Shown here piece by piece: positions 1 through 44,797 of a DNA stretch of 52,804 nucleotides (position 1 is its first letter; each line of letters begins with the position of its first letter). Origin of the DNA: Bacillus gaemokensis (GTDB taxonomy: Bacteria; Bacillota; Bacilli; Bacillales; Bacillaceae_G); assembly GCF_001590835.1 (NCBI RefSeq), contig NZ_LTAQ01000014.1, positions 1 through 52,804 of the forward strand. The letters run 5' to 3'. A program made the position numbers and the translations under genes. The notes under the pieces are model-generated. The model made no database searches and was not told where the DNA came from. It saw nothing but the letters and a program-made list of their open reading frames with translations.

Positions 1-186
1 AGCCCATTGGAATACAGGGTTCAAGCCGCTTAAAGTATTTTTATTATTTCCACTGTCTACTTGACAGGGAGCTGTTCAAGATTAATCAAAATGGATTCTT
101 TTCTTTTTGGGTGCACTTTCCGTTTTATAAAAAAGTTTAATCATTTCTGTGATCCTTCTTCAATTAATGCGCCCATTAGCGGAATA

Positions 187-285
187 CTAATTAGTCATTT
201 TCATTTGTTCGTGTAAACGATTCTGTAAAATAAATTGTGTAAACATACCAGCGATGCGAGTAGTACATACTGGACATACGTTAAG
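187..285 (-). pseudogene. Short CxxC-containing gene remnant
   Basis: The first 305 bases hold no complete gene. On the minus strand an open stretch of 32 codons runs from just after a stop at 286-288 to a TAG at 187-189. It has no start codon and no ribosome site, and it encodes a C-P-V-C pair followed by a helix-like tail. It looks like the C-terminal end of a small zinc-ribbon protein whose front is lost. The break lies where base composition changes towards the GC-rich VOC gene. I do not recognise the family. Confidence 0.25.
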
Positions 286-305
286 CTAAATGCCGACAGC
301 ACGGG

Positions 306-9711: not shown

Positions 9712-9726
9712 TTCACGTATAGATCC

Positions 9727-9838
9727 TCTTATCTTTCAAAAGACATAAATGCCTTTGCGGAATTAGCACCTTCCTATAATACTAAATAGGGGTTGCTGAG
9801 GTTTCATAGGGCCTTTCCCTCCACCTCTCTGGATAAGT
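9727..9838 (-). promoter_or_regulatory. SAM-I (S-box) riboswitch aptamer
   Basis: Read on the minus strand, this shows the S-box consensus in order: CTTATC opening P1, AGAGGTGGAGGGA, GGCCCTATGAAACC, CAGCAACC, AAGGTGCTAATTCC and GCAAAGGCA, then GATAAGA closing P1. It lies about 140 bases upstream of the S-component gene. S-boxes switch off methionine and SAM supply genes when SAM is plentiful. Confidence 0.93.
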
Positions 9839-9998
9839 ATTCATTTGTAATTTGTATTATTACACTAACAAGGGGTAATTTCAACACTTTTCTTACTATT
9901 TTTATTTTTACACAAAATAATAAAGATAAATCATTGTATTCTTATCGGAATTATGAAATAATGAACGCGACAAAGGATGTTAACGGGAGGAATTGAAC

Positions 9999-23707: not shown

Positions 23708-26110
23708 TTATATATTGGAATTATTAATTAAATTAAAGGTATTGCTTTTTTTACTTTCAATCTTCATTATATCTTCATCCAACTCATCGTTTAATCCGCA
23801 TGAACCGATATCTGTAATGTAGTTTTTAATCTTTTTCACCATCTGCATTGGATAGGGCATAAGTGTACGTCTATTAAGCGTCATACTTGTTTTGCACATA
23901 TAATCTATCATTCTCGCAATATCATCTCTTTTTTCTCGCTTCGCACCTAAAATGATTATTTCAAGTACACGCTGTTGCGATAATAAGGCAGCATTTGATG
24001 CTTGCAAGTCGGTACTATAATAAATTCCTTGTTGATCTACGAATAAACCTGAAGTATTATTACTTTCATCTTTTTGATTGAGTATATAATTTGGTACATC
24101 ACTCAACGTATTAATTCTAATTCCTTTTAAGTTAGGAAATGATTGCAATACAGCATCAATTTTAGGCAAACCATTTATATCAATCTGTCCATTTTGCAAT
24201 TCTTCTATCCAATAATCTCTAATACTCGCATCAGCTATAAAATAAACTTGTTCGTTTTTTTCCCGCGCCTCTTGTGCGATTTGTATTAACTCATCTGTCA
24301 CAAATTGTTTAAAATGAATTCCTATGTCATTCCGTTTAGAAGGTTGTGGTAAAAAAGATTGATTTCTATCCATACTTAAGATTGTATGATCAAAAGTTCT
24401 CCAATTTTCATTACCGTGTAACTTATATAAAATTTCTTTCCTATTTATTTTTGAAAAAATAGGTAGAAACTGATTTTGATGTATTTTTTCTATCGATAAG
24501 CTTACAAGTGTACCTGGAATATTTATACGATTCCAATTTTGTTTTAGAAATCCCCTATCTGCTAGTAAATCAAGTATAGCGCTCAAGATACGATCCTTCT
24601 CTATATCCTTCCCTGTTAACGACTCAATAAATTGTGAAATACGATTAGTTCGCGCAAAACCTTCTCGAATTACTTGTTTTGGATCAATTTTTTCACGTCC
24701 ATCACATTTTTCAATCTCAATTAAAGACAAAATCATTTCGAACTCTGTATCTGCAATAGTATGTAATTCTTGAATAACATGTTGGACACAGCGTTCTTTA
24801 TATCTATGACAATAATCCATATGATATGGATCTTGCTTAATTCTTTCTGGTCTGCGTTCTATAATTCTCAATACAACTTGCGGGGTAGAATTTAATCTGT
24901 AGAATGTATCAGCCATTTTCTCTAATACGATTCCGTTTTTCAATAATACCTCTTCTACTTTCGTTAGCATGTGATTTGACCATAATTCTAGTGTGATTTC
25001 TTTCAATCCATTGGGTGTATGTAGAGGTACTAAATCGTTATTGTCATCTATTTTCACTTCTTGACATGCTGGAATCATCTTTAAATGCGGAAATCTTTGC
25101 TGAAATTCTTTTAGAAGCGCCTCTTTTTCTGCTAAGCCTATACCACGTTCTATTTTGGTACCAGAAACCTTAAAAGTACTTTCATTATAAACAATTAGTA
25201 CACGCACACTCTTATCTTCACTATATTTTTGTAGATTTCGAATAATAGTAACAAGTTTCAACTTCTCTTCTAACATTAAAACACCTAGAAATCCTCTAGA
25301 TTTTTTGGTCCATCTTATTCCAGTTTGTGTACTTTCAATTGTTAATTTCACGAAAACTTCCTTATCATTATTAAGCATAGGATTTCTAATCGAAACAAGC
25401 ACTGTCCCTTTTCTTCTTTTTAGGAGTATAGATAAATTATCTTGATCCGAGTGTTGATAGAAACGCCTAATCCCAACTGAAACTTTTAATAACGGGATAT
25501 TTTCAATTCCACGGGTTATAAACTCAAATCGGTATACATATGAAAAATAGTCTTGGGTTTCTTCATGTTTTATAGGTTCTGATAGCGCTTCACATATATG
25601 TTTTGAACGAAGTGGATAAAATGATAGTTCTCCCTTATATCCATTTTGAATGGATATGTTTAAAGACTGCATACAAAATTTATGGGTAATCAACGCTGGA
25701 ACCCATTTGTACAACGTTTTTTCATCATGTAAAACAGGCAAATGAGAAACTAACTCAGATTGCCATTCTAGTGGGAATTCTCGAGGCATTTCAGTGGGCT
25801 TCCAATTATGAATGACAGCGTACCAACTGCGACAAATCCAGTCTAAATGTTCCGCTTTTAAGGGGCATGTAGATATAATCCACGGTTCTCCTTCCGCCAA
25901 TATATATGGATCATGTTGGATAAATAAAATATCAGAAAACATATTATACAATTGCTTATTAAGGTTTTCTAATTTCTTCTTTAATATATACGGCCTATTA
26001 TGTTCTAACAATAGACCTGACCATTCGATTGGCCAATGAACATAAGATAATCTCTCATAAAAAAGGGGGTCTAAGACATCTTTAAATGCTAGTAATTGTA
26101 GTGTTTTCAT
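23708..26110 (-). CDS. pPIWI-RE family protein (DUF3962 / RNaseH_pPIWI_RE), solo
   Basis: An 800-residue protein of the prokaryotic Piwi-related family pPIWI-RE, built from an N-terminal X domain (DUF3962, to about residue 350), a MID-like region (about 360-500) and a C-terminal RNase H-fold Piwi domain. The C-terminus shows GLFVDQQGIYYSTD (688 on), VLEIIILG (Glu 717) and NRRTLMPYPMQMVKKIKNYI (Arg 747/748), candidates for the conserved E and R that name the family. Such proteins are proposed RNA-guided factors in conflict with mobile DNA, normally encoded with a REase and a DinG helicase; neither is here. Start at 26110 follows AAAGGAAG. Base composition is like its neighbours. Active-site completeness cannot be judged by eye. 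Confidence 0.75.
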   Translation of the reverse strand: MKTLQLLAFKDVLDPLFYERLSYVHWPIEWSGLLLEHNRPYILKKKLENLNKQLYNMFSDILFIQHDPYILAEGEPWIISTCPLKAEHLDWICRSWYAVIHNWKPTEMPREFPLEWQSELVSHLPVLHDEKTLYKWVPALITHKFCMQSLNISIQNGYKGELSFYPLRSKHICEALSEPIKHEETQDYFSYVYRFEFITRGIENIPLLKVSVGIRRFYQHSDQDNLSILLKRRKGTVLVSIRNPMLNNDKEVFVKLTIESTQTGIRWTKKSRGFLGVLMLEEKLKLVTIIRNLQKYSEDKSVRVLIVYNESTFKVSGTKIERGIGLAEKEALLKEFQQRFPHLKMIPACQEVKIDDNNDLVPLHTPNGLKEITLELWSNHMLTKVEEVLLKNGIVLEKMADTFYRLNSTPQVVLRIIERRPERIKQDPYHMDYCHRYKERCVQHVIQELHTIADTEFEMILSLIEIEKCDGREKIDPKQVIREGFARTNRISQFIESLTGKDIEKDRILSAILDLLADRGFLKQNWNRINIPGTLVSLSIEKIHQNQFLPIFSKINRKEILYKLHGNENWRTFDHTILSMDRNQSFLPQPSKRNDIGIHFKQFVTDELIQIAQEAREKNEQVYFIADASIRDYWIEELQNGQIDINGLPKIDAVLQSFPNLKGIRINTLSDVPNYILNQKDESNNTSGLFVDQQGIYYSTDLQASNAALLSQQRVLEIIILGAKREKRDDIARMIDYMCKTSMTLNRRTLMPYPMQMVKKIKNYITDIGSCGLNDELDEDIMKIESKKSNTFNLINNSNI

Positions 26111-26435
26111 AACGTGAATACTTCCTTTCTTTTCGTGCATCTTTACATACTATTTATAAATAGATCATATAGAGCAAAAAATAAGCAAGTTACATTCCTT
26201 TAAACTAAGTACAATGAGAAGTTAAATTTCCCTTTTATAAGAATCAAAAATAAAGAAATCGATTTAACAATGAAAACTACGAAGTAATTGCAAATATTTA
26301 AAGCCATATTCTTCAAAATTTCCGCATATATTTTGAACCCCCTTTTATACTATTATAACACTATCCGAATCCATTTTTTAACAAAAAATAACTTTGTAAT
26401 ATAATCTAACTTATATTCCTTGATTATAAAAACAC

Positions 26436-26596: not shown

Positions 26597-27511
26597 TCAT
26601 TTCTCATTTACTCCTAAAGCTCCACGTGCCATCTCCATGTGCGCTTCCTCTTTTGTCTGAAGAGCAAACAACCCAATCATTACTGGATAAGCAGCACCAA
26701 GTTCAATAATATGTTCAAACATTTTTGGCCAAACTTTCCCTCCTGCTTTTTCATATTCGTTTAATAGTATTTTCAAATTACCTTCTCCAAAGATTGTAAG
26801 GTAAAGTGTAAAATCAGTAGCTGGATCAGTCACTTTTGCTTCTGTCCAATCCAACAAACCTGTTACTTTATCATTTTTATCAACTAAAATATGTGGCGGG
26901 TGTAAGTCCCCGTGAACAAATGCAGAATACTTTGGCCAATATGTTTCATCTGCCAGCCATTTTTGCCATCTGTCCCATAATGTATCTGATACACCAAGCT
27001 GTAACTTTATTTGCTGCATCCTTTCTATTAACAATTGCTTTGCTTCAGCAGGTTGAAGAACTTCAATTCCATACTGAGTAGCTTCATCATAATCAATTGA
27101 ATGCAGAGCAACAAGTGACTTCGCTAACGATTGAATAAATGTCATAGACGGTGGATTATTTTGAATATGCCACACATAATTTTGTATCTCTAAATCAATA
27201 ACAGCCGCAGGAGTACCTTCTACTAATGGATACGCAATCAATTCTGGTGTATTAATTTTCCAATTCGGCACCGTTACAGGTAAATGTTTTTGAACAAGTT
27301 GTAATATGTTTCCCTCTAATGCTCCTCTTTCAATAACATCTGGTCTTCTCGGTTTCCGGAGTACCCATGTCTCCCCCTGTTCATCAGCAGCAAATACAAC
27401 TTGAAAATCCATACCTGATTCGTTTAATTCTGCAGTTTCTTTATTCAATTGTAAGCCGTTCTTTTCCGCAATCTTTAAAATTTCTTCTATACTATTCTGT
27501 TCATTTATCAT
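26597..27511 (-). CDS. mphL: Macrolide 2'-phosphotransferase (Mph family)
   Basis: A 304-residue aminoglycoside-phosphotransferase-fold kinase. Mph enzymes phosphorylate the desosamine 2'-hydroxyl of erythromycin-type macrolides. The catalytic loop is FVHGDLHPPHILVD near residue 195 (Asp of HGD) and the metal-binding motif is GLLDWTEAKVTDPATDF. The first half shows WVLRKPRR (nucleotide-site lysine) and LIAYPLVEGTPA, typical of Mph rather than APH. It resembles the intrinsic Mph described from the B. cereus group, hence the symbol, which is from memory. Start at 27511 is chosen because AAAGGGGTG lies seven bases upstream. The 430-base leader holds a probable macrolide-sensing peptide and two terminators. 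Confidence 0.82.
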   Translation of the reverse strand: MINEQNSIEEILKIAEKNGLQLNKETAELNESGMDFQVVFAADEQGETWVLRKPRRPDVIERGALEGNILQLVQKHLPVTVPNWKINTPELIAYPLVEGTPAAVIDLEIQNYVWHIQNNPPSMTFIQSLAKSLVALHSIDYDEATQYGIEVLQPAEAKQLLIERMQQIKLQLGVSDTLWDRWQKWLADETYWPKYSAFVHGDLHPPHILVDKNDKVTGLLDWTEAKVTDPATDFTLYLTIFGEGNLKILLNEYEKAGGKVWPKMFEHIIELGAAYPVMIGLFALQTKEEAHMEMARGALGVNEK

Positions 27512-27546
27512 AAATAAACACCCCTTTAATGTCTTCATATAAACAC

Positions 27547-27575
27547 AAAAACCACAGGCTGACTGCCTGTGGTTT
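27547..27575 (-). terminator. Intrinsic terminator immediately upstream of the mph gene
   Basis: AAACCACAGGC pairs perfectly with GCCTGTGGTTT around a five-base loop, followed by five T, only 36 bases before the mph start codon. There is no gene just upstream for it to serve, so it is likely an attenuator. An AAGGAG at 27614-27619 precedes it but has no ATG at the right distance. Confidence 0.7.
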
Positions 27576-27627
27576 GAGTAAACGGAATACGCTATAACAA
27601 ATAAACTGAAAAACTCCTTCTTATATT

Positions 27628-27657
27628 TCTATAGAAATATAGATAGAGATCTTTCAA
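27628..27657 (-). promoter_or_regulatory. Possible proximal promoter of mph
   Basis: TTGAAA (27657-27652) and TATAGA (27633-27628) are 18 bases apart on the minus strand; the -10 lies within a palindrome TATTTCTATAGAAATA. Confidence 0.3.
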
Positions 27658-27775
27658 GTCTTATGAATGGTCTTTGTATAGAATGTAATAATTTATGATT
27701 CACTATATATTCAAAATAACACCAATGATGAATCATATTACAGTGTTTATTGTTATATTTATTTTTTAAGACATC

Positions 27776-27810
27776 AAAAAGAGAGTAATTTCGCTCCGCT
27801 CTCTCTTTTT
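27776..27810 (-). terminator. Terminator-like hairpin in the mph leader
   Basis: AAAAAGAGAG pairs perfectly with CTCTCTTTTT around a 15-base loop. It comes about 90 bases after the leader peptide stop codon and could be the first regulated terminator of the mph leader. Confidence 0.5.
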
Positions 27811-27897
27811 GTATCACCCAAATGGGTTTACCTTAAAAATAGGCAGACCAATCCCGATTACCCTGCACACAGGCAGAGCCTTTGTAGCACTATTTAA

Positions 27898-27939
27898 TTA
27901 GCGGCTCAAAGTACAAAATCGGAATCTTAAAAATGCCAT
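27898..27939 (-). CDS. ErmD-like macrolide-arrest leader peptide MAFLRFRFCTLSR
   Basis: A 13-codon ORF with GGAGGG nine bases upstream and a near-consensus promoter just before it (27974-28002). The peptide contains R-F-R, the +x+ motif at which macrolide-bound ribosomes stall, in the frame R-x-R-F-x-T-L shared with the ErmD leader MTHSMRLRFPTLNQ. After the stop codon GAGCC of the ORF end can pair with GGCTC downstream, followed by a terminator-like hairpin. It most likely senses macrolide for the mph gene 390 bases downstream. An alternative is that it served a resistance gene since lost. Confidence 0.7.
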   Translation of the reverse strand: MAFLRFRFCTLSR

Positions 27940-27973
27940 CAGGTAAATCCCTCCGTTCTTTAAAGTTACTTAC

Positions 27974-28002
27974 ATAATATTATTAATATATGTGTTTTAC
28001 AA
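27974..28002 (-). promoter_or_regulatory. Promoter of the leader peptide transcript
   Basis: TTGTAA (28002-27997), a 17-base spacer, and TATTAT (27979-27974) on the minus strand. Transcription would begin close to 27966, about 27 bases before the leader ATG, which suits a sensing leader. Confidence 0.6.
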
Positions 28003-28203
28003 GAAAAAGATGATTTAATTTTCAATATAATCTTTTGTTACATACTTATTTTCCTTTTGACTGCACCCAAGTAGCAATATCATTAATGACATACTCAGGA
28101 ATATTCTTCTATATTTCGCGATTTTTATTATGTATTTTTTATAGCATTTGATTTCTTTTTTTGCCGATATTACTACTAGAGCATAGAAAGAAATGTTATA
28201 AAT

Positions 28204-43627: not shown

Positions 43628-44797
43628 CTAACTTAACGTTAAATTCGTAAACCCTAATTCTTTTTGTTTATGTTCTCTATACTTTGGAGAACACGTATAT
43701 ACTAACAGTCCGCGCGCATTGGTAAATAGTGGGTTATCTACAAATATTACATTCGTTAGTCGGCCTTTTTGTTTTAAAATTAACTGTAAGCTGTTTTTAA
43801 TGATAACTGCGCCCCCGCCATAAATAAATACATATGGATCATCTTTCATATCATCAATTTTATTAATAATATCTGTCGCAACTCGTGCAGCTAACCCCAG
43901 AAGTGCTGGTTGTGATTCTTCAACTAATAAAGGATTTCTTGGGTGTTTCTCATTTAAGTAAATTTGATTAAACTCTGTAATGCTATCTATTGTTTTTGTC
44001 GGATATTTCCGGTTCCATCTTGTGATGATTTGTAATAAAGTTTCTTTTACTCCATAAGATAACCCTTTACTTAATTGCGGCCTGAAATTCACACCTAACG
44101 AAACAACCTCCTCAGTTGTCCCAGCACCTATATCGAAGGATAATAATGTTTTATCAACAAAATCAATCTCAGAGACTGTATTTTTTTCGCCTTCAATCTT
44201 ATGTTTTATAACATTTCCTTCTTCATCATATACAATTCCCCAAGTACCAGAAGCTCCTTCCGGTAGGCATTTACAAAATTCAACAGAGACATTTATCGTG
44301 ACGTCTCTCCCATTTGGATAATGAAAAACAACTTTATGATTCCCCATATAACGTTTCGCATTTTCAGACGCTATTTCATGAGTAATGAGCTGCATTGGAA
44401 GAGCAACTGATAAATCATAGCGGATATTGATATGATTTGAATTCGGATTTTGCCGCATAGCACTAATTGCTAAACCAGATAAAATCGTAAGAACCATTAA
44501 TTCATCTGTTGATTTATTGGATTTTTTCTCAACTTCTGTTCCTTTTAACTGATCCTGAATAACCTTCTGCCCAACAATATAACGTACATTATTTAACATT
44601 AAAGATGGAGAACTAATCGTTACATCAATATGATTTTCCAATTCGGACATTGGTACATCTACTTCATCCAATAAACCTGTGGATTCCCCGATATATAACG
44701 AATAAATACTTGGAACATAAATTGGTTTTTGTCCCTTTACCATTAATTTCAAACCATTATTTCCAGCATCTGCACCAGCTTTTAAAAGTATAGACAT
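43628..44797 (-). CDS. ParM/StbA-family actin-like ATPase
   Basis: A 389-residue actin-fold protein. Phosphate-1 loop is AGADAGNNGLKLMV at residues 7-20, phosphate-2 is LLSFDIGAGTTEEVVSLG near residue 215, and the adenosine motif is FIYGGGAVIIKN near residue 335. Such proteins polymerise to push plasmid copies apart. Here the gene is chromosomal by context, with a small RHH-like partner and no replication genes. It may be an integrated-plasmid relic or an adapted chromosomal or phage filament. AGGGGGTATTT precedes the ATG. I saw no iterated centromere-like repeats in the 185 bases upstream. Confidence 0.85.
   Translation of the reverse strand: MSILLKAGADAGNNGLKLMVKGQKPIYVPSIYSLYIGESTGLLDEVDVPMSELENHIDVTISSPSLMLNNVRYIVGQKVIQDQLKGTEVEKKSNKSTDELMVLTILSGLAISAMRQNPNSNHINIRYDLSVALPMQLITHEIASENAKRYMGNHKVVFHYPNGRDVTINVSVEFCKCLPEGASGTWGIVYDEEGNVIKHKIEGEKNTVSEIDFVDKTLLSFDIGAGTTEEVVSLGVNFRPQLSKGLSYGVKETLLQIITRWNRKYPTKTIDSITEFNQIYLNEKHPRNPLLVEESQPALLGLAARVATDIINKIDDMKDDPYVFIYGGGAVIIKNSLQLILKQKGRLTNVIFVDNPLFTNARGLLVYTCSPKYREHKQKELGFTNLTLS

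What the first reader, a model, noticed from the sequence alone, without database searches (positions are those of the whole stretch)
27898..28002. ErmD-like arrest peptide MAFLRFRFCTLSR upstream of a macrolide phosphotransferase
A well-formed mini-gene (promoter, GGAGGG, 13 codons) encodes R-F-R-F-C-T-L, close to the R-L-R-F-P-T-L core of the ErmD leader, at which macrolide-bound ribosomes stall. It sits in the long leader of a macrolide-inactivating kinase rather than an erm methylase. That would make mph macrolide-inducible by the same +x+ principle, a link I have not seen described.
Basis: partly seen in the sequence, partly recalled or inferred. Interest (0 to 1): 0.82.

Follow-up and report, generated by a model that had tools for sequence, protein, structure and literature searches.

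The report
Macrolide-sensing switch before resistance kinase
In front of a gene for an enzyme that inactivates macrolide antibiotics lies what looks like a short RNA switch with a 13-amino-acid test peptide; by sequence it is the same kind of switch long known in front of the resistance gene ermD, and relatives of it stand before several other macrolide-resistance genes in Bacillus-type bacteria.

Summary
In detail: minus-strand frame MAFLRFRFCTLSR (27939-27901) with GGAGGG lies 428 nt before a macrolide 2'-phosphotransferase (27511-26597); two terminator-like hairpins follow it. The reading is supported and goes beyond a peptide resemblance. A covariance model built from 17 leaders of other genes (erm, mef, rlmA/ABC-F, hflX; no mph) finds this leader in the whole window at 96.7 bits, E 6e-23; next best 14.9 bits. 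So it belongs to the RNA family of the erm(D)/erm(K) attenuator. That family occurs in 142 of 397 Bacillales genomes; of 140 hits whose surroundings were read, 130 have an mph, erm, mef, ABC-F, rlmA-like or hflX-like gene within about 3.4 kb downstream and 133 an R-x-R frame. Of 72 mph places at least 43 have it directly upstream and 13 more at operon distance. The Arg codons are nearly always AGA and CGN and overlap one arm of a conserved helix. Most likely a drug-stalled ribosome on the leader prevents termination before mph. Stalling, termination and inducer are untested; folding showed no clean switch. Rfam has no such family.

The parts
27974..28002 (-). promoter-like site TTGTAA-17-TATTAT
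   Evidence: 9 of 12 matches, not above shuffle expectation
27831..27959 (-). core of the attenuator RNA (match of models R1 and R2)
   Evidence: R2, built without mph leaders: 96.7 bits, E 5.9e-23; R1, which includes this leader: 131.6 bits
27949..27954 (-). Shine-Dalgarno GGAGGG of the leader frame
   Evidence: sequence; GGAGG conserved in A1 and A2
27898..27939 (-). leader frame MAFLRFRFCTLSR plus TAA
27917..27926 (-). helix P1, 5' arm, inside the R-F-R codons (GATTCCGATT)
   Evidence: fold; pair counts (85.8% of cells paired, a change on both sides in 1 of 10 pairs)
27850..27859 (-). helix P1, 3' arm (AATCGGGATT)
27907..27911 (-). helix P2a, 5' arm CTTTG (in codons 10-11 of the frame)
   Evidence: 93.2% of cells paired, changes on both sides in 4 of 5 pairs; absent (gaps) in 4 of 16 leaders
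27880..27884 (-). helix P2a, 3' arm CAAAG
27861..27878 (-). hairpin P2b CTCTGC-loop-GCAGGG; its 5' strand plus loop can pair with the 5' arm of hairpin 2
   Evidence: duplex energy with the hairpin-2 arm -17.0 kcal/mol
27842..27848 (-). GTCTGCC; its GTCTG is invariant in A2 and its TCT pairs with the AGA of the leader frame in the consensus structure of R2; candidate antiterminator strand (inference)
27776..27810 (-). terminator-like hairpin 1 (weak, -7.4 kcal/mol core)
   Evidence: not listed by the stricter scan
27541..27575 (-). terminator-like hairpin 2 with T tract, ends about 13 nt before the mph ribosome-binding site
   Evidence: -17.8 kcal/mol
26597..27511 (-). mph, macrolide 2'-phosphotransferase, 304 aa

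Best explanation
The region is an erm(D)/erm(K)-type ribosome-controlled transcription attenuator placed before a macrolide kinase gene. Without drug the 13-codon leader is translated to its end, the leader RNA folds so that the R-F-R codons (AGA-TTC-CGA) pair with AATCGGGATTGGTCT downstream, and RNA polymerase stops at one of two hairpins before mph. With a macrolide or ketolide in the tunnel the ribosome halts at R-F-R (Phe6 in the P site, Arg7 in the A site), covers that arm, frees downstream strands to pair with the terminator arms, and mph is transcribed. Shown here: the leader frame, the RNA-family membership, the two hairpins as sequence features, the association with mph and other resistance genes. 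Inferred: promoter, stalling, termination, antitermination, the inducing drug.
For: R2 (17 non-mph leaders) hits 27959-27831 at E 5.9e-23, 14 of 22 named mph loci given to it at E <= 5.1e-6 (10 directly before mph, 4 before an upstream hflX) and all 7 plasmid loci given to it, two of them annotated mph. Pair counts on 16 mph leaders: 90.6% of cells paired, 8 of 21 pairs with changes on both sides (shuffles mean 2.6), slid controls at most 54.8% paired. R1 in 397 Bacillales genomes: 142 with a hit at E <= 1e-4; of the 140 hits fetched (the better-scoring part of the list) 130 have an mph, erm, mef, ABC-F, rlmA-like or hflX-like gene within about 3.4 kb downstream, against 4 of 183 control frames in flanks, those 4 being hflX genes that themselves follow the element. 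Mph places with the element: 41 of 72 directly upstream by the listed hits, 43 with two more found by direct scan (L036, L052), plus 13 at 1.6-1.8 kb. R-x-R in 133 of 140; first Arg AGA in 125 of 133, second CGN in 127 of 133. The ermD leader MTHSMRLRFPTLNQ (L087) has two such hairpins at like places, +143..173 and +270..297. A hairpin beyond +175 was found in 102 of 144 leaders, its arm pairing with the leader core better than shuffled arms (-14.0 against -8.9 kcal/mol). Attenuators of this kind are experimentally described for hflXr (PMC6310831, passages) and mef/msr (PMC10314930, passages), and ermK is listed as transcriptional (PMC5418344, passage).
Against: RNAalifold on A1 by itself predicts P2b but neither P1 nor P2a, with a covariation term of only -0.67. 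P1 has a change on both sides in only 1 of 10 pairs, and fails in L059/L060 as drawn. The window core folds only moderately better than shuffles (z -1.99; 7 of 200 as good). Hairpin 1 of the window is weak (-7.4 kcal/mol). Minimum-energy folds with and without a modelled ribosome form both hairpins. Predicted sequestration of the hairpin-1 arm does not differ between states in the window (0.75 free, 0.73 stalled) or in ermD (0.11, 0.11); over the 121 of 144 leaders with a detected hairpin it rises in 35, falls in 6, and changes little in 80. In one search own arms beat other leaders' arms in only 65 of 102. For 16 of 72 mph places no element was found, and R1 misses the RLR-ending leaders of L008, L009 and L018; 24 of 51 mph loci lack a direct R-x-R frame. 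Two mph leaders with the RNA core (L032, L033) have no R-x-R (MANQIPVFALIK, MANHIPVYALMK). The promoter match is not above chance.
Confidence: 0.85

Rival explanations
1. The leader works by translation attenuation (or both layers): the stalled ribosome opens the mph ribosome-binding site instead of, or besides, preventing termination.
For: The full-length fold pairs part of the mph start region in a hairpin; the B. subtilis rlmA-type gene yxjB uses both layers with an RYR leader (PMC6851288, passages).
Against: A U-tailed hairpin was found at the first position in 121 of 144 leaders and beyond +175 in 102 of 144 (some of these may be the first hairpin shifted); ermK, the nearest described member, is listed as transcriptional (PMC5418344, passage).
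Confidence: 0.2
2. The leader is a relic: the element came with an erm or other gene, mph now lies behind it, and it no longer responds.
For: Hairpin 1 is weak here; a broken mph behind an intact-looking leader frame exists elsewhere (L020/L096; stops inside the mph match).
Against: Frame, ribosome-binding site, both Arg codons, helices and second hairpin are all kept although the leader is at most 77% identical to its nearest relative among 144; the element stands directly before mph in at least 43 of 72 mph places.
Confidence: 0.1
3. The conserved segment after the leader is a second leader peptide (GTG start, MCRVIGIGLPIFK...) and the signal is read there.
For: A similar frame with an AAAG(G) site appears in L003, L004 and L005; a paper on ermD strains speaks of two putative leader peptides (PMC6333372, figure legend among the passages seen).
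Against: The segment lies in helices P1 and P2b with paired changes; the reading frame differs in L021 and L043.
Confidence: 0.07
4. Chance: a short arginine-rich frame in a long leader.
For: Short frames with SD-like sites are common in AT-rich leaders (one search lists many).
Against: 27 of 51 against 1.6 in shuffles and 0 on the reverse strand; R2 hit E 5.9e-23.
Confidence: 0.01

Closest known systems
erm(D)/erm(K) attenuator of the Bacillus licheniformis group (leader MTHSMRLRFPTLNQ)
   Same: Same RNA family by a covariance model built without mph leaders; +x+ leader; same helices; two terminator-like hairpins, the second 83% alike over 42 nt.
   Different: Stands before a macrolide kinase instead of a 23S rRNA methylase; motif RFR at positions 5-7 instead of RLR at 6-8; the residues named as important for erythromycin arrest (Ser4, Met5) differ.
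hflXr attenuator rli80 of Listeria monocytogenes (PMC6310831, passages)
   Same: 14-aa leader with RLR, alternative terminator and antiterminator, induced by lincomycin and erythromycin; hflX-like genes carry this RNA family in Bacillales (27 of 140 hits with hflX alone).
   Different: Different gene; the Listeria RNA itself was not tested with the models.
mef(A)/msr(D) attenuator of streptococci (leader MTASMRLR; PMC10314930 and PMC4335068, passages)
   Same: +x+ leader and transcription attenuation; Bacillales mef-like genes carry this RNA family with leaders such as MTASMRLRFPLFIR.
   Different: Streptococcal RNA not tested; efflux gene instead of kinase.
yxjB/tlrB leader of B. subtilis (MIIQFIRYR; PMC6851288, passages)
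   Same: R-x-R arrest at a leader before a macrolide-resistance gene in Bacillus; termination control.
   Different: RYR at the peptide's end, NusG pause, SD-sequestering hairpin; not tested for RNA-family membership.

Membership tests
erm(D)/erm(K)-type attenuator RNA | RNA sequence and structure match to members other than mph leaders | tested here: met
   R2 on the window: 96.7 bits, E 5.9e-23
erm(D)/erm(K)-type attenuator RNA | short leader frame with SD and +x+ motif | tested here: met
   MAFLRFRFCTLSR, GGAGGG
erm(D)/erm(K)-type attenuator RNA | two intrinsic-terminator-like hairpins between leader frame and gene | tested here: met
   27810-27776 and 27575-27541; the first is weak and only
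erm(D)/erm(K)-type attenuator RNA | mutually exclusive antiterminator fold when the ribosome is stalled | tested here: inconclusive
   complementarity present, but folds do not switch for the window
erm(D)/erm(K)-type attenuator RNA | macrolide-dependent ribosome stalling and induction | not testable with these tools
   needs toeprinting and reporter tests
ErmDL leader peptide itself | R-L-R at 6-8 with Ser4 and Met5 | tested here: not met
   here R-F-R at 5-7 and Leu4; it may work like ErmDL but is not that peptide
Macrolide 2'-phosphotransferase (Mph) | APH family and best match to Mph models | tested here: met
   PF01636 5.6e-34; Mph(C) and Mph(B) models 3.2e-95 and 8.4e-95
A named Mph allele (C, B, E/G, M, L, F, A) | score above the curated cut-off | tested here: not met
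   319 bits against 550 for Mph(C); the others likewise below
Any Rfam 15 family | covariance-model match | tested here: not met
   none up to E 1 in 27480-28050; at gathering thresholds none on the leaders of L087, L129, L149, L163, L138

The most novel reading that the evidence does not exclude
A single, unnamed RNA family (absent from Rfam 15), in which the arginine codons of the arrest motif double as one arm of the regulatory helix (AGA-NNN-CGN), serves as a portable macrolide sensor: it has been joined repeatedly to at least six kinds of resistance gene (kinase, rRNA methylases of two types, efflux, ABC-F protection, HflX-like ribosome splitting), occurs in over a third of sampled Bacillales genomes and on plasmids, and gives those cells a coordinated macrolide-response regulon in which drug inactivation by mph is one output.
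Probability: 0.6. Interest if true: 0.75.

Novelty: new member of a known kind. Interest (0 to 1): 0.62.

Why it matters
It ties a macrolide-inactivating kinase to the erm(D)/erm(K) sensing principle by RNA homology, offers a reason why many Bacillus-type mph genes have long leaders, and turns separate cases into one RNA family with a consensus that can be tested on the described ones (ermK, mef/msr, hflXr). It predicts that many chromosomal mph and related genes are inducible, which bears on how intrinsic macrolide resistance is measured. The codon rule AGA-NNN-CGN is a testable example of one stretch coding for peptide and RNA structure at once.

Tried and rejected
Promoter consensus as evidence: not above shuffles. 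RNAalifold on A1 alone: finds P2b, not P1 or P2a; the structure used for R1 was drawn from the fold of the window core. MFE folding of the window leader with and without a modelled ribosome: both hairpins form in both states, so the switch is not shown. Partition-function test of hairpin-1 sequestration: 35 up, 6 down, 80 little changed of 121; window unchanged. Second leader peptide MCRVIGIGLPIFK: weaker than the RNA-helix reading. DNA like the window's own leader in plasmids and phages: no match. Window flank against plasmids: one weak ParM match; the mph segment matched 348 plasmid records at 60-80% identity, the 20 rows shown being mph genes. Identity of the organism: no whole genome is held; tenA/MBL DNA in 397 genomes gave at most 79% in the listed matches; left open (a Bacillus; resemblance to the cereus group is recall only). 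Leader tree: gene classes need 37 changes on the best tree (least possible 6), but only 17 of 135 inner branches are well supported and these force far fewer (at most 4 for one class), so repeated recruitment is likely, not proven.

Mistakes corrected: loci from the genome search are not turned to the match strand. Searches used no turning; for minus-strand loci searches are therefore wrong, and redoes this (one search turned its loci). Notebook remarks about tandem MRLSSYRL frames (L045/L046) and an ABC-F after L077 are withdrawn. One search had a strand-list slip and was replaced. One BLAST reference (ABCF2, from the unturned L077) therefore does not stand behind an attenuator; it gave one secondary hit (L251, 28%). 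One search used the printed places, a capped list: it counted 41 direct, 13 at operon distance, 18 none; one search shows that two of the 18 (L036, L052) do have the element.

Rows dropped before counts: L022 (its upstream scan output was identical to that of L017) and L042 (same contig as L016) from the 51 mph loci; L020 from alignment A1 (shortened leader, broken mph); L008, L009 and L018 were not put into A1. Of the hits listed, 140 were fetched; four already-held mph loci (G001, G116, G144, G368), six weak ones at the end of the list and the unlisted tail were not, so the 140 are the better-scoring part.

Full report
What is there. On the minus strand the window reads: tenA with a TPP riboswitch (28942-28253; 29210-29103), then a leader of about 455 nt (if transcription starts near 27966, which is assumed) and mph (27511-26597). 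The leader holds GGAGGG, the frame MAFLRFRFCTLSR (27939-27901, TAA 27900-27898) and two hairpins with T tracts, 27810-27776 and 27575-27541. The second ends about 13 nt before the mph ribosome-binding site. The enzyme is an Mph by Pfam, NCBIfam and PDB comparison but reaches no named allele's cut-off.

Is it more than chance. A scan for mph relatives gave 23 loci, nearly all in Bacilli, the closest 62% identical, and a search of 397 Bacillales genomes gave 72 places in 71 genomes. In 51 distinct mph loci, 27 have within 600 nt upstream an SD-preceded frame of 6-25 codons with R-x-R, against 0 on the reverse strand and 1.6 on average (maximum 6) in 20 shuffles. Examples: MAYIRFRLNFVLAN (B. swezeyi, B. 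paralicheniformis, B. haynesii), MAYIRFRLPLIK (B. glycinifermentans), MLDHFSRLRTLRH (Brevibacillus borstelensis), MVNHSRLRTLR (Paenibacillus agilis), MTASMRLRFHALNR, MMLSGRLRQQTLNNK.

It is one RNA family. Sixteen mph leaders align over about 130 nt (A1). A structure taken from the fold of the window core, with P1 formed by the R-x-R codons and AATCGGGATT, P2a CTTTG/CAAAG and P2b CTCTGC/GCAGGG, has 90.6% of cells paired and 8 of 21 pairs with changes on both sides; sliding the 3' partners drops pairing to at most 54.8%. Against this: RNAalifold left to itself predicts only P2b of these, P1 has a double change in one pair only, and the window core's folding energy is only 1.99 sd below shuffles. 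Model R1 built from A1, searched in 21 genomes of the named loci, hit 19 at E <= 0.01. After turning minus-strand hits, 27 of the 30 listed hits stand before mph, erm, mef-like, ABC-F, rlmA-like or hflX-like genes; the other three are two weak hits (E about 1e-3) before an unidentified gene and one before a gene that starts like the MFS group of L172. Among the 27 are ermD leaders MTHSMRLRFPTLNQ before Erm (L087, L089; L087 checked by Pfam).

A less circular test. A second model, R2, was built from 17 leaders of erm (4), mef (4), rlmA/ABC-F (2), ABC-F (2) and hflX (5) genes, no mph. On the whole window it gives one strong match, 27959-27831 minus, 96.7 bits, E 5.9e-23; the next is 14.9 bits. 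Of 22 named mph loci given, it hits 14 at E <= 5.1e-6; in 4 of these (L012, L013, L015, L016) the match lies 1.5-1.8 kb upstream, before an hflX gene. E-values are rough by the tool's own statement; the gap in bits is what counts. R2's members were found with R1, so their choice leaned on an mph-trained model, but its letters and structure come from other genes. BLASTN agrees: 80% over 95 nt with an erm leader (L129), 77% over 82 nt and 83% over 42 nt (second hairpin) with ermD's.

Spread. R1 in 397 Bacillales genomes: 142 genomes with a match at E <= 1e-4, under stricter filters that lose weak ones. For 140 of the better-scoring hits the downstream DNA was fetched and frames within about 3.4 kb classified by BLASTP against references (references checked by Pfam): Mph alone 35, HflX 27, Mef 19, ABC-F 12, ABC-F+Mph 10, Erm 9, RlmA+ABC-F 7, Mef+ABC-F 4, HflX+Mph 3, four single other cases, none 10. 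Of the ten, L165 and L240 are cut by the contig, L166, L172 and L218 have an MFS transporter and L239 an ABC ATPase, and L136, L236, L244 and L263 stay unclassified. Control: 4 of 183 frames elsewhere in the named loci match these references, all hflX genes that lie behind the element themselves. Of 72 mph places, 41 have a listed hit within 700 nt, 13 lie 1.6-1.8 kb behind one (the distance of one intervening gene; in several, ABC-F or hflX), and 18 had none listed. A direct scan of 28 of these loci found the element directly upstream in 17, among them two of the 18 (L036, L052), so at least 43 direct; 16 remain without.

Plasmids. The ermD leader as DNA query finds 25 plasmid records. Eight were opened: an RNA methyltransferase gene plus msr in Priestia, mef(F)-msr(G) in Macrococcoides, msr-type ABC-F in Stenotrophomonas, mphN in Exiguobacterium mexicanum and a macrolide 2'-phosphotransferase in Planococcus maritimus at 91% leader identity over 152 nt; in two an SDR-family gene follows and one is cut at the record end. 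R2 matches the leader in all 7 uncut ones, at 66 to 136 bits. So annotated records carry an ermD-type leader directly before mph.

The codon rule. In 133 of 140 R1 loci an R-x-R frame was found; the first Arg codon is AGA in 125 and the second CGN in 127. In A2 the letters AGA, CG and GTCTG are invariant, and the consensus fold of R2 pairs AGA with TCT. The arrest codons thus overlap the 5' arm of P1. R1 and R2 contain these letters, and AGA is in any case a common Arg codon in AT-rich genomes (recall), so the counts describe the family and are not an independent test; the contrast between the two positions is the telling part.

Mechanism. By analogy with ermK (listed as transcriptional in PMC5418344), hflXr (PMC6310831) and mef/msr (PMC10314930), a stalled ribosome should cover P1 and let the freed strands pair with the terminator arms. 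Supporting: a hairpin beyond +175 in 102 of 144 leaders, whose 5' arm pairs with the leader core (window -17.0 kcal/mol; means -14.0 own, -12.6 with other leaders' arms, -8.9 shuffled; own better than other in 65 of 102; some of these hairpins may be the first one shifted). Not supporting: folding does not show a clean switch in the window or in ermD, and hairpin 1 of the window is weak. Published ermK transcripts ending at two terminators are recalled, not read (paper not held).

Which drug. In ErmDL, +x+ is essential for telithromycin arrest, while erythromycin arrest depends on Ser4 and Met5 (PMC8298421, passages); the yxjB leader answers tylosin and not erythromycin (PMC6851288, passages). 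The window peptide differs at those places, so the inducer may be a ketolide or a 16-membered macrolide; open. MphI and MphK act poorly on cladinose macrolides (PMC5760710, passages); the window enzyme's specificity is unknown.

Novelty. Ten paper searches (listings, with passages read in ten of the papers) found no description of an mph leader of this kind. A one-clause remark that drug-inactivating enzymes are thought to be under leader control is in PMC6851288, and an erm presumably in one operon with mphB is noted for B. halodurans in PMC9927578. Rfam 15 has no family for it. The element itself is a new member of a known kind; the breadth of the family is the more interesting part.

Noticed in passing
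window 23708-26140 (-): 810-aa protein with pPIWI_RE N-terminal, MID and RNaseH domains downstream of mph; a candidate prokaryotic Argonaute-like defence gene.
   Followed up: no
window 9726-9839 (-): SAM riboswitch before what looks like an ECF-type transport operon (182-aa membrane protein, 572-aa double ATPase, 275-aa membrane protein, reading by eye).
   Followed up: no
window 43628-44797 (-): 389-aa ParM/StbA-like protein (71% DNA match to a Bacillus arachidis plasmid gene) in what otherwise looks like chromosomal DNA.
   Followed up: no
window 28092-28015 (-): 25-codon frame MSLMILLLGCSQKENKYVTKDYIEN, looks like the start of a lipoprotein; possibly a gene remnant between tenA and the leader.
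   Followed up: no
L138 763-1319: Group II intron parts between the attenuator leader and the rlmA-like gene.
   Followed up: no
L032, L033 leaders: Leaders with the RNA core but without R-x-R (MANQIPVFALIK, MANHIPVYALMK) before mph; perhaps another arrest motif.
   Followed up: no
L166, L172, L218, L095: Attenuator matches before about 490-aa MFS transporters (three by Pfam; L095 by its similar start), a possible further output.
   Followed up: partly
L271, L272 (plasmid records): Leader of this family before an SDR-family oxidoreductase gene, in Latilactobacillus and Acinetobacter plasmids.
   Followed up: partly
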